Below, piece after piece: positions 3,079-8,958 of a DNA stretch of 64,000 nt (its first letter is position 1; each line of letters opens with the position of its first letter). The stretch comes from Sistotremastrum niveocremeum HHB9708 (lineage: Eukaryota; Basidiomycota; Agaricomycetes; Sistotremastrales; Sistotremastraceae): positions 19,064 through 83,063 of the forward strand of contig KV419441.1 of NCBI GenBank assembly GCA_001630475.1, given 5' to 3'. The notes beneath the pieces were generated by a model that searched no databases, was not told where the DNA came from, and was given only the letters and a program-made list of their open reading frames with translations. A program made the translations under genes and the position numbers.

Positions 3079-4436
3079 TCAAGCCTCGCGTTCCTCTTTG
3101 TCGTTGGCCTCCTCAAGATTGGTCATAGAGATCTTTTGATAATCTCCTTTACTGGCGTCGGCTGGCAACGATTCTTGGTGTTTAATCCAGGTATACCAGA
3201 GAGAGCCCGCGAGAATAGTCAGGATTGACAACGCACGTTGGCTATAATCTAGGTTCAGCGTTCGTTCCGTGGCAACCAGCATTGAAACTTACACAGTGAT
3301 CACATCCCCGAACAACCACAAGCCTAACATAGTAGCACCAACTCCACGTACAGCCGAAGACACCATGTGCGTGATAGGAGAAGTAATTTTGACTGACAAA
3401 ATGCCTGCCACGGAGATGAGGAAACCGATGAATCCCTGGAGAAGTTCAGCTGATTGAGACACGCAAGCAGCGGCTCCTGAAACTCACGGTCAAAGCGCAA
3501 CCCCAAACAAAGGTATTAAACTTCAACGCCGGTGCATTGGTGAAAAGATCAACCAACTCTGGCCACTCCCCGACAAGGAAGATACCGGGGAATAAGACAA
3601 TCGCAGTCAACACGTTGGAGTACCACGCAAGATCAAGCGCCGAGTTGTTCAACACACCCAACGAACGCTTGATCACGACAACATGGCAGGCTGTCACGAC
3701 GGAGCTAAGGAGCCCGAAAACAATTCCCACAAAAGTGAAACCTCGCGATGAGGCGGACTGAGTAGAATTGGATGGAGAGACGCCGACTAAGAATCCACAA
3801 AAGACGACGAAACACGAGAAAAGAATGCGCAGTGATGGTCTCGATTTGAGGAAAATGTATGAGGTAACGACGGTGAAAGGGAGGACCAAACCGCGAGCGA
3901 CTTGATAAAAGGACGCGTCTACGAATTTGAGGCAGTAGGTGTTGAAGCTGGGACAACAATAGGATGATTCAGAAAACAGAGACAAGGATAAAAGCATCCA
4001 CGCACCTGAGACCGAGAACGTTCAAGATGATCAAAGGTGCCAATGCTTTTGTAGCTTCGTAGTCTATTCTCCATCCCATGGAGAATTGGAGGCGTCCAGA
4101 GGCACGGCAAATGGCCAACAAGACCACAGCGATGAGCAATTGGATGAGCAAGAAGCTCAGGGGAGTCTCAGAGCTGTTTAGGACCCATTTGTTGCTGCCA
4201 AAAGTAGATTAGAGACGACCACCGCAGGACGACGAGATATTCACGCCATAACCATCTGGGAAAAGGAGTTTTAGCCTCTTGGACACCACAAGACGGGGAA
4301 AAACACGAACCCCAAGTGCGGAAGAAATGTAAAAAGATACCGTTCCGGCCTGCAGCGAGAATGAGGACGATGCGAATTACGCGATGAGAATGCGACTGAC
4401 AATGAGAGCTCTTGAAGGGGGCGTTTGGTCTGACAT
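3079..4436 (-). CDS. GDP-L-fucose transporter-like nucleotide-sugar transporter (SLC35C1/DMT family)
   Basis: Seven exons (4436-4401, 4349-4311, 4255-4245, 4194-4006, 3947-3488, 3435-3293, 3241-3079) join in frame to 346 residues, with an 11-nt third exon. The protein is hydrophobic, with about ten membrane segments of the drug/metabolite transporter fold. Diagnostic pieces line up with SLC35C1: NKWVLN after helix 1, FNTYCLKFVDASFYQVARG in the middle, and the KITSPITHMVS block before the last helices. The tail is charged and cytosolic. The expected role is exchange of GDP-fucose for GMP across the Golgi membrane. Two other genes of the same pathway lie within 4.5 kb, which supports GDP-fucose over GDP-mannose or triose phosphate, although substrate cannot be proven from sequence. 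Confidence 0.8.
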
Positions 4437-4736
4437 GTCTAGAGAAATGAAGCAATAGGGATGGCGAAGAAAAACGTGTAGAGATGGAGAGGGGTCAAAA
4501 GAGAGTGTGGGTGATCGGTCTATTTGCTAATGTTGTGCCCTGTCTCGGAAGCATGGCCCAGGCACATCGCAACCTCTTCGCTTTCCGGAACCACTTTCTT
4601 GGCACTCGTAACTCGCACAGGTTTTCGTTGTATACAAGACAATCATTCATGCTACCTACAATTTGACCGACCTTCACTCTGTCAATCTCTAATGCTGTTG
4701 ATCGACTCGACCCTCGTCTAGTATTCCAAGGCTCTT

Positions 4737-5692
4737 CTAATCTGCCGCTTTGATCCCACGGCCACACCGCTCTAGCGAACCGTCTTCTAGTTCGTAGGCT
4801 GGTCGGTAGCGCGCCGGGATGGTATCTCCATCGTTGATATTGTTCTCATCAGGGGGCTTGTATAGCGACGGATTTGGAAACGTATTGTAAGTTGATCCCA
4901 GGGAAGTGTACCTGTATCGAGGATCTCTACCTCGTTGCAACGTTTCAGCGAAGAATACGACTCACCCTTGATCGTACAAGGAGCAGTATTTAACGTCTAG
5001 TGCCCGCAGGAATCGCCAGATATCCGCGTAGTCCCAGTCAATAATGGGGTGAACCCTCATGTATGCTGGCCAATCGACATCGGTTGGAGTACGATGGGAT
5101 AGTTTCTCTGTTCTGACATGCGGTCAAAGCCTAGAATGATAACAACATGCCTACCGCCATGAGGATCTGTTCTCCGTGTCCCGATCAGGATTGCGTCAAT
5201 CTCCGGGCACTGTTTCCTATAGAGATCCAGTGCCGTCTTCATTCCTCCAGCCATGACTCCTGGTTCGAATATCTTCAAATTGTACAGATGGCGGGATTCA
5301 TCGATGAAGGCTTCCATTTCATGGAACGGTGACGGCATAGGAATGTATATTGCATGAATTTCGGATGGCTCCCCATTCTCGGTTGGATACAAGTCGAGTT
5401 TGTGGAGTGCAGCGGCGTACAAATGCAATAACACAGTGCCTGATAGCCGAGCTGTAAAGATTAACATGCGGCACGTAGGGATTGAATAGCGTACAGTCCT
5501 TGCCACCGTTGAAACTGAGAGACAGTCTCCGCTTGCTGCACAAGTCAAGATATGGACGAAAGGTCAAAGCGATGCGACGCACCCGTATGTATTGATGGCC
5601 TCCTCAATAACCGATAGAGCTTCAGACACACGGGGGGCTATGGGATCATTAGAATGAGCAAGGTCGAAGACGGCCTGCAGGTTAAGGCTCAT
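4737..5692 (-). CDS. FAD1: FAD synthase (FMN adenylyltransferase, PAPS-reductase fold)
   Basis: Five exons (5692-5583, 5535-5495, 5439-5155, 5107-4966, 4911-4737) give 250 residues. The enzyme transfers AMP from ATP to FMN, giving FAD. Visible motifs are the ATP pyrophosphatase loop SFNGGKDCT, the GTRRTDPHG signature of eukaryotic Fad1, DVDWPAYMRVHPIIDW and YTSLGS near the end, with the usual length for the fungal single-domain enzyme. It lies between the fucose transporter (same strand, 300 bp downstream) and GDP-mannose dehydratase (divergent). Only 195 bp separate its start from the dehydratase start, so the two probably share a promoter region. A functional tie to fucose synthesis is not required: the downstream synthase uses NADPH, not FAD. 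Confidence 0.88.
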
Positions 5693-7222: not shown

Positions 7223-7471
7223 TCGTACCTCGCTCTTTCCACCCTGTAGTAGACCCTTCGTTTAGAATACTGTAGTCTTCTCGTCATGTGCCGTTATCGT
7301 CGGGTTCTGGACGTTGACTTGTTTTAGGGTTCGTTTCATAGTTGTCGAGTATTATCGGAAATATAATTTGTCATGCTTTGTTGGAAAACGCGACCCCAAA
7401 ATTGTATTTTTCGTCGAAAAAGTCTATTCTATACAGAACAATCAAGAAAGCCTAAGTCTCGCCAATACCGA

Positions 7472-8958
7472 TTAAGCTTTCGGCTTCCCAATCCGAGCGC
7501 TGTTGTAATTGGCCACGAACCACGCAACCGTATCGTCGAGCGCTGTATCAAGGTACAAGAACATCGGTTAGACAATCTAGAACTCCGGCGGTTGATCGGC
7601 GCGAGCTTACCCTTATCAAACGGCGTGAACTCGAATCCGCCCATCAGCTTCAGAAGCTTTTCGTTCGAAGCGGGCTTCCGGAATTGGCCATCGGCACGGC
7701 TGGTATCGAACTAGTTCGTGTTTCATGTCAGTCGCGTATCTCATCGATCGCGAAACGATTTGCACGAACCGAGTATTCGCCTTGGAAGCCGACGGCCTTG
7801 ACGATCGCGTCCGCGACCTGTTTGATACTCACCTCCTCGTTTTCACCCACTATTCCCTTATAAGGCATCCATTATTCGCATTCTGGAAGAAAGACGAACC
7901 GGAAAGGATAACGGGCTCGACAGAGTCGTATTCCCTCAATTGCCAGATGAACAGCTTGGCAAGATCGTGAGAGTAGATGAATTGACGCAGGGGCTTTCCC
8001 GTGCCGGCAACGACAAAAGGTGTACCATTCTCTGTTCCAGGCCTTGTCAGCGTGCCTTGAGAGAGAAGCGAAATGAACTGACTTTTGGCGTTATAGCATT
8101 TATGAATGAGGGCAGGAATGACATGGGCGTCCTCAAGATCACTGCGCGACGAATTAGGAAGCTTCAGACAGAAGCGAGGAAATTGAAAAATCATACAAGT
8201 TATCATGAGGACCAAACACGTTGGTTGGAATAGCCGACGTGAAGTTGCATCCGAACTCCTCATTGTATGCGCTAAGACGCAAAATCAGATAAGGAAAACA
8301 GGCAGAGCGGAGCTTCGTACTGATTCTGAACGTCTACGAGACGTTTGGCATGCGCATAACCAAAGTTGCTCTCATGAGGAGGGCCATTGTGGATGTTCAG
8401 CTCATTCAGGGGATATTCAACTTTGTCAGGGAAGACGCAAGTCGACAGGCAGGAAATAAGTTTTTTAGTGTTGCTGAGATATGAGGTGTGAAGGATGTTG
8501 TCATTGATGAGGACGTTTTCGCGCAAGAACGTGAGCTGGTGATACCTAGTCAAACCCAAGTCAAGTTTAAGACGACCCAACAAGATCTACCTTGTATTTC
8601 ATGTTCTTGAACAAACCACCCACTAGAGAAAAACGCGTCAAGTCGTATGATAATCGATGGACGCGACGACCAGGACGTACCAAGGGCAGCAAGGTGGATG
8701 ACATGGGTAGGCTTGTACTTCTCGAAGAGAGCTTTTGTCTGTTCAGGATCCCTTGTAAGTAGATCTCCGTCAGTATCAGCAAGTGTATCGAAATCGCTGT
8801 TGATCACACCTGAGATCACCCTCCTTAGAACTGGCGAAGATCCATTTCTCGCCAGGTTTGCGACCAAATCGCGAGCCTTCGGGTTCATTATTGATGACAT
8901 ATTCGATGGCCTTGCCGACCAGGCCAGTTCCGCCAGTGACGAGGATAACGTCGCCCAT
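7472..8958 (-). CDS. GDP-L-fucose synthase (3,5-epimerase/4-reductase, TSTA3 type)
   Basis: Ten exons (8958-8810, 8751-8681, 8622-8591, 8535-8321, 8271-8197, 8141-8083, 8031-7900, 7849-7770, 7710-7611, 7542-7472) sum to 327 residues. Every junction is in frame and reproduces the TSTA3 sequence order. The protein starts MGDVILVTGGTGLVG (Rossmann glycine motif), carries SCLSTCVFPDK with the catalytic Ser/Cys region, NFGYAHAKR with the Tyr-x3-Lys pair, PTNVFGPHDNF, and the RQFIYSHDLA substrate segment. It turns the dehydratase product into GDP-L-fucose with NADPH. It is convergent to the dehydratase. The high intron number contrasts with the four introns of its pathway partner. Confidence 0.93.

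What the first reader, a model, noticed from the sequence alone, without database searches (positions are those of the whole stretch)
3079..8958. Clustered de novo GDP-L-fucose pathway with its own transporter in a basidiomycete
GDP-mannose 4,6-dehydratase and GDP-L-fucose synthase are convergent neighbours, and a GDP-fucose-type (SLC35C1-like) transporter lies 1.5 kb beyond the dehydratase start. Together they make and import the fucose donor. Motifs of all three are seen in the sequence. It is established that these enzymes make up the GDP-fucose route and that some mushroom polysaccharides contain L-fucose. That they are physically clustered, and form a selected unit, is inference. No fucosyltransferase is in the window.
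Basis: partly seen in the sequence, partly recalled or inferred. Interest (0 to 1): 0.75.

Follow-up and report, generated by a model that had tools for sequence, protein, structure and literature searches.

The report
Loosely conserved GDP-fucose gene neighbourhood
A fungus carries, close together, the two genes that make activated fucose and a gene for the pump that probably carries it into the Golgi; the genes are ordinary, but in many mushroom relatives they lie on the same stretch of chromosome, which may be old inheritance rather than a selected cluster.

Summary
Observation confirmed. In Sistotremastrum niveocremeum HHB9708 the window encodes GDP-mannose 4,6-dehydratase (GMD, 5888-7222 +), a convergent GDP-L-fucose synthase (GFS, 8958-7472 -) and an SLC35C1-like transporter (4436-3079 -). 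Only one GMD and one GFS gene were found in the genome, which has a separate GDP-mannose transporter. The transporter's substrate is inferred.

Adjacency was tested in other species by exact contig length and locus tags. Genes share a contig in 17 of 24 (GFS-GMD), 20 of 28 (transporter-GFS) and 16 of 26 (transporter-GMD) organisms, about 1 expected under random placement, over nine other orders of Agaricomycetes. Spacing by ordered tags varies from 1 to 43 intervening genes, and a minority have them on separate contigs. The linkage is old but loose. Whether selection holds it is open: Agaricomycetes show degraded macrosynteny generally, and no unrelated gene pair could be run as control.

Possible users of the fucose exist elsewhere: seven O-FucT-like loci, one head-to-head with a second SLC35C1-like transporter. 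The pathway is known in basidiomycetes; I found no description of the linkage.

The parts
3079..4436 (-). SLC35C1-like GDP-fucose transporter gene: exons 4436-4401, 4349-4311, 4255-4245, 4194-4006, 3947-3488, 3435-3293, 3241-3079; 346 aa
   Evidence: Model; PF03151 and PF00892 over their cut-offs; 49-55% identity, 90-100% coverage, to the listed homologues apart from one 93% metagenome hit; 31% to human SLC35C1 as recalled against 19% to a solved GDP-mannose transporter
4737..5692 (-).
   Evidence: Model (ended at 4738, one base inside the stop codon; stop read); PF01507 102.8 bits; best solved chains FAD synthases 8ron, 8rom
5888..7222 (+). GDP-mannose 4,6-dehydratase gene (GMD): exons 5888-5978, 6034-6061, 6111-6881, 6934-7032, 7087-7222; 374 aa
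   Evidence: Model; PF16363 517.8 bits; 5uzh, 5in4, 1t2a at E below 1e-155; 100% to P0241
7472..8958 (-). GDP-L-fucose synthase gene (GFS): 10 exons from 8958-8810 to 7542-7472; 327 aa
   Evidence: Model; GDP-L-fucose synthases 4e5y, 4bkp at E about 1e-134; 100% to P0121
5693..5887 (.). 195-bp stretch between the divergent GMD and FAD synthase genes
   Evidence: Distance between the two ATG codons; promoter role inferred

Best explanation
The locus encodes the supply line of GDP-L-fucose to the secretory pathway. GMD converts GDP-mannose to GDP-4-keto-6-deoxymannose; GFS (3,5-epimerase/4-reductase) converts that to GDP-L-fucose in the cytosol; the SLC35C1-like antiporter exchanges it for GMP across the Golgi membrane, where fucosyltransferases encoded elsewhere use it. 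The chemistry follows from strong family membership (established knowledge of the families); the transporter's substrate is inferred. The physical closeness descends from an old Agaricomycete linkage group that holds these genes, loosened to different degrees in different lineages, with other genes mixed in, here an FAD synthase. It is not a tight co-selected cluster of the secondary-metabolite type, although weaker selection for linkage is not excluded.
For: Enzyme identity. One gene each found in the genome. Transporter: 10 of 120 listed relatives named GDP-fucose transporter; solved GDP-mannose transporter 9s35 matches it at only 37 bits while another gene, on C11, is 50-61% identical to that protein over 4 pieces; 31% identity, E about 1e-30, to human SLC35C1 typed from recall (a lead only). 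Linkage: same contig in 17 of 24, 20 of 28 and 16 of 26 organisms, 0.8-1.3 expected; all three on one contig in 8 of the 11 organisms present in all three lists; orders. Loose spacing: tag differences 2 to 44, median 5, in 9 pairs from 8 species. Background: Agaricomycetes show degraded macrosynteny within the class (PMC3219968, passages). Possible users: seven O-FucT-like loci.
Against: No transport assay, GDP-fucose measurement or expression data. A second SLC35C1-like gene exists (C7, 43% identical), so the window gene need not be the main carrier. A survey of fungal fucose metabolism speculates that Dikarya use fucose mainly as a nutrient rather than as a building block (PMC10481521, abstract). 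The linkage result rests on contig lengths and tag numbers, not gene maps, from capped lists of 120 rows, with 30 Mb assumed for every genome. No unrelated neighbour pair was run as control; spacings of 2-6 tag numbers in some species are tighter than simple decay might leave.
Confidence: 0.68

Rival explanations
1. A selected supply cluster: GMD, GFS and the GDP-fucose transporter are kept near each other because co-regulation or co-inheritance is favoured, the FAD synthase being a passenger.
For: Linkage across nine other orders of Agaricomycetes far above random placement (orders, Agaricales recalled); spacing of 2-6 tag numbers in six of the 9 pairs; transporter and GFS on one contig in three organisms whose listed GMD is on another (Heliocybe, Marasmius, and Taiwanofungus, where the GMD row is of another strain).
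Against: Spacing of 11, 17 and 44 tag numbers in others and 74 gene numbers in Ganoderma; separate contigs in a minority of organisms; a gene of another pathway interrupts here; degraded macrosynteny is general in the class.
Confidence: 0.25
2. Chance adjacency in this one genome, with no conserved linkage.
For: Some organisms have the genes on separate contigs (7 of 24, 8 of 28, 10 of 26).
Against: Same-contig counts of 17 of 24, 20 of 28 and 16 of 26 against about 1 expected.
Confidence: 0.03
3. The transporter carries another substrate (another GDP- or UDP-sugar), so the import step is not part of the locus.
For: Pfam assigns only the broad TPT and EamA families; no GDP-fucose transporter is among the solved structures matched; two of 120 relatives are named as triose phosphate transporters; a second SLC35C1-like gene exists, and it is that one which stands next to an O-FucT-like gene.
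Against: Closer to SLC35C1 (recalled letters) than to a GDP-mannose transporter; the genome has its own GDP-mannose transporter-like gene; linkage with GMD and GFS across the class.
Confidence: 0.15

Closest known systems
De novo GDP-L-fucose pathway (GMD EC 4.2.1.47; GDP-L-fucose synthase EC 1.1.1.271)
   Same: Both enzymes at full length, with solved relatives at E 7e-159 and 2e-134; GDP-fucose synthesis predicted near-universal in basidiomycetes outside Ustilaginomycotina (PMC8092308, passages)
   Different: Nothing in the enzymes; the two surveys do not mention linkage of these genes in the passages and terms searched
SLC35C1-type Golgi GDP-fucose/GMP antiporter
   Same: Similar length, 31% identity over 338 residues to human SLC35C1 as recalled; fungal relatives named GDP-fucose transporter by their sources (10 of 120 rows)
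   Different: Distant; substrate untested; a paralogue exists in the same genome
Fungal metabolic gene clusters
   Same: Consecutive pathway steps plus a transporter within 6 kb
   Different: Primary nucleotide-sugar metabolism, interrupted by an FAD synthase, spacing not fixed between species
Degraded macrosynteny of Agaricomycetes (PMC3219968, passages)
   Same: Genes remain linked while distances change
   Different: Whether this set exceeds the class-wide background was not measured

Membership tests
GDP-mannose 4,6-dehydratase | Full-length PF16363 match over the curated cut-off | tested here: met
   517.8 bits against cut-off 27, profile 1-332 of 332
GDP-mannose 4,6-dehydratase | Glycine-rich cofactor motif and SDR catalytic motifs (recalled) in line with a solved GMD | tested here: met
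   GITGQDGSYL, STSELYG and SPYGVAKLY align with 5uzh
GDP-mannose 4,6-dehydratase | Converts GDP-mannose to GDP-4-keto-6-deoxymannose | not testable with these tools
   No assay
GDP-L-fucose synthase | Nearest solved relatives are GDP-L-fucose synthases over full length | tested here: met
   4e5y, 4bkp, 4b8w, 4b8z at E 2e-134 to 3e-134; GDP-mannose 3,5-epimerase only 3e-8
GDP-L-fucose synthase | Catalytic Ser and Tyr-x3-Lys (recalled) in line with 4e5y | tested here: met
   CLSTCVFPDK and FGYAHAKR align with CLSTCIFPDK and FGYSYAKR
SLC35C1 GDP-fucose transporter | Nucleotide-sugar transporter family over nearly its full length | tested here: met
   PF03151 over cut-off, residues 19-309; homologues at 90-100% coverage
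SLC35C1 GDP-fucose transporter | Closer to SLC35C1 than to GDP-mannose transporters | tested here: inconclusive
   121 against 45 bits, but the SLC35C1 letters were typed from recall; a separate GDP-mannose transporter-like gene fits
SLC35C1 GDP-fucose transporter | Exchanges GDP-fucose for GMP at the Golgi | not testable with these tools
   No assay
Selected metabolic gene cluster | Linkage conserved beyond close relatives | tested here: met
   by contig-length proxy
Selected metabolic gene cluster | Contiguous genes with stable short spacing | tested here: not met
   FAD synthase interrupts; tag differences 2 to 44, 74 in Ganoderma
Selected metabolic gene cluster | Linkage above that of unrelated neighbouring genes | not tested
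Selected metabolic gene cluster | Co-expression | not testable with these tools
   No expression data

The most novel reading that the evidence does not exclude
GDP-fucose synthesis and its Golgi transporter form an ancient nucleotide-sugar supply cluster, kept linked by selection since early in the Agaricomycetes and breaking up only in some lineages, while a second transporter copy forms its own divergent pair with an O-FucT-like fucosyltransferase: two separate supply modules for fucosylation in one fungus.
Probability: 0.2. Interest if true: 0.62.

Novelty: new member of a known kind. Interest (0 to 1): 0.4.

Why it matters
Fucosylation is little studied in mushroom-forming fungi although some of their polysaccharides, such as the fucogalactan of Ganoderma (PMC10608111, passage), contain fucose. 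A linked set of synthesis and transport genes gives knockout targets and a chromosomal region in which to test co-regulation. If the linkage exceeds the general synteny of Agaricomycetes, it would be an unusual clustered nucleotide-sugar pathway in eukaryotic primary metabolism. If it does not, it is a clear case of ordinary macrosynteny looking like a pathway cluster.

Tried and rejected
Rejected: chance adjacency confined to this genome; the transporter as the genome's GDP-mannose transporter; a fucosyltransferase of the families searched inside the window (own-genome searches with PF00852, PF10250, PF03254, PF19745, PF17039 gave no match on contig C48). The zero results for PF00852, PF03254, PF19745 and PF17039 are weak: introns split the genes and the tool says nothing rang in its control genomes either.

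Led nowhere: mushroom polysaccharide papers with gene tables gave both gene numbers only for Ganoderma lucidum (PMC6298397, passages); the terms searched in PMC7568368, PMC8655778, PMC10608111 and PMC9605614 did not show both. The C7 O-FucT-like exon had no match among solved structures at E 10. The second transporter gave no Pfam match at E 0.01. A frame near 2310-2850 gave no Pfam match over a cut-off. No structure prediction was run, since it would not settle substrate.

Rows left out of the counts: proteins without an organism name, all Rhizoctonia solani rows (several strains mixed), and the window's own species. One GMD cluster named Sparassis latifolia was counted as Sparassis crispa because its longest contig has the length of the S. 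crispa contig. Each search scored at most about 8,000 candidates and listed the best 120, so the 82, 71 and 80 organisms used are a subset. Some species are mixtures of assemblies (Taiwanofungus, Trametes sanguinea, Lentinula edodes, perhaps Abortiporus). Tag distances use only same-contig pairs with ordered GenBank-style tags visible on both sides; that tags follow gene order is assumed, and for Sparassis that they go in steps of 10; the third Stygiomarasmius pair (transporter-GFS, 23) was not in the script. JGI protein numbers and Volvariella (two small contigs) were not used there.

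Full report
What is there. Exon joining gives four open genes within 3079-8958: an SLC35C1-like transporter (4436-3079, minus), an FAD synthase (5692-4737, minus), GMD (5888-7222, plus) and GFS (8958-7472, minus). The 23 introns of the four models have GT..AG ends and are 47-68 nt long. GMD and GFS are convergent with 249 bp between their ends; FAD synthase and GMD are divergent with 195 bp between start codons; about 300 bp separate the transporter start from the FAD synthase stop. 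Pfam and solved-structure searches identify all four at family level.

Organism. GMD and GFS are 100% identical over full length to proteins of Sistotremastrum niveocremeum HHB9708, listed under genus Sertulicium, order Sistotremastrales. The contig length recorded for those proteins, 256,620, is that of the window's contig C48, which supports using contig length as an identifier.

Function. GMD aligns with solved GMDs over its length with cofactor and catalytic motifs in place (motif roles recalled). GFS is nearest to solved GDP-L-fucose synthases. Other PF16363 matches in the genome reach at most 65 bits against 413, and all 8 matched pieces of GFS lie in the window. The transporter matches its 120 listed relatives at 49-55% identity, apart from one 93% metagenome hit; 10 rows bear a GDP-fucose transporter name, two a triose phosphate transporter name, and most other named rows say hypothetical or uncharacterized. 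The only nucleotide-sugar transporter it matches among solved structures is a GDP-mannose transporter at 37 bits, and the genome has another gene, on C11, 50-61% identical to that protein. Against human SLC35C1 typed from recall it scores 121 bits and 31% identity, against the GDP-mannose transporter 45 bits and 19%. SLC35C1 exchanges GDP-fucose for GMP at the Golgi (PMC10709068, start of abstract in the listing; its title also reports transport in its absence). The substrate here is inferred.

Is the neighbourhood conserved? No gene maps of other fungi were available, so I used two proxies from the protein searches: the exact length of the longest contig holding each protein, and ordered locus tags. 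Of 82, 71 and 80 named organisms for transporter, GFS and GMD, those in two lists share a contig in 17 of 24 (GFS-GMD), 20 of 28 (transporter-GFS) and 16 of 26 (transporter-GMD); random placement predicts 0.8, 1.3 and 1.3 (every genome taken as 30 Mb). All three are on one contig in 8 of the 11 organisms found in all three lists; in the other three (Heliocybe, Marasmius, Taiwanofungus) transporter and GFS are together and the listed GMD apart. On contigs under 450 kb the same-contig counts are 9, 5 and 3. At least one pair is linked in members of Auriculariales, Cantharellales, Corticiales, Amylocorticiales, Boletales, Gloeophyllales, Russulales and Polyporales and Agaricales (order recalled). 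Against: 7, 8 and 10 organisms have different contigs. Several are different strains, mixed assemblies or fragmented assemblies, but others have large contigs (Heliocybe, Irpex lacteus, Ceratobasidium AG-Ba) and are probably true separations.

How tight is it? Ordered tags give differences of 2 (Amanita muscaria and A. phalloides, transporter-GFS), 4 (Tricholomella, transporter-GMD), 5 (A. brunnescens, GFS-GMD; Marasmius, transporter-GFS), 6 and 17 (Stygiomarasmius, GMD-GFS and transporter-GMD; its transporter-GFS difference is 23), 11 (Sparassis crispa, transporter-GFS, steps of 10 assumed) and 44 (A. inopinata, transporter-GMD) (tags; 9 pairs). A paper's gene numbers for Ganoderma lucidum differ by 74 (GL20928 and GL21002; PMC6298397, passages), if these numbers follow position. 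The genes stay linked but spacing is not fixed. Agaricomycetes show degraded macrosynteny within the class, and no mesosynteny was seen in basidiomycetes (PMC3219968, passages), so linkage alone does not show selection.

Where does the fucose go? The window has no match to the fucosyltransferase families searched. Elsewhere a 617-aa frame on C26 matches O-FucT (PF10250) at 40.2 bits, over the cut-off of 31.5, but over only the first 38 of 326 profile positions (27.2 bits in the genome search). A protein on C7, put together with one X, scores 33.1 bits over positions 10-201. Its main exon finds four further loci at 48-50% identity (C9 twice, C52, C5), three of them with one stop inside the matched frame, perhaps introns, and a more distant one on C8: seven O-FucT-like loci in all. 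The C7 gene is head-to-head with a second SLC35C1-like transporter, 43% identical to the window's. All 120 relatives found with the window transporter are closer to it than to the second copy, as expected from how they were found. Which copy carries most GDP-fucose is open, and fucosyltransferase activity of these proteins is inferred.

What is known. GDP-fucose synthesis is predicted near-universal in basidiomycetes outside Ustilaginomycotina (PMC8092308, passages). A survey of fungal fucose metabolism describes de novo synthesis, five enzyme families of fucose-related modification and transporter groups, and speculates that Dikarya use fucose as a nutrient while early-diverging fungi use it as a building block (PMC10481521, abstract, results and first part of the discussion). 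For the terms searched, the first paper says nothing of gene neighbourhoods or clusters and the second describes neighbourhoods only for fucosyltransferases. My paper searches found no description of linkage of GMD, GFS and the transporter in fungi (listings, and passages of those papers named above); the library holds open-licence papers only.

Verdict. Observation confirmed; the interpretation as a selected cluster partly supported. Enzyme identities are sound, transporter substrate likely, linkage old and broad, selection undecided.

Noticed in passing
G000 contig C7 about 813,800-816,640 (L012, L013, L020, L029): A second SLC35C1-like transporter (43% identical to the window's) lies head-to-head with an O-FucT-like gene: a possible second fucose supply pair.
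   Followed up: partly
G000 contigs C26, C9 (two places), C52, C5, C8: Further O-FucT-like loci, seven in all with the C7 one; three have one stop inside the matched frame.
   Followed up: partly
window 9222-9560, minus: Frame upstream of the GFS start codon on the same strand that matches the PEX14-like KPWE domain weakly (22.2 bits, under the cut-off of 27); possibly a small peroxisome-related protein.
   Followed up: partly
window about 9,860-11,365, plus: Looks by eye like an ArfGAP gene (CADC..C-type stretch near 9,890) with a glutamine/proline-rich tail; the tail alone gave no Pfam match.
   Followed up: no
window 875-1738, minus: RING-finger-like frame (PF00097 26.2 bits, over the cut-off of 21).
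   Followed up: partly
window 147-575: Imperfect short direct and inverted repeats; possibly a decayed repeat element.
   Followed up: no
Artomyces pyxidatus P0019 and P0041: Two window-type transporters on contigs of different length in one species, both 52% identical to the window's.
   Followed up: no
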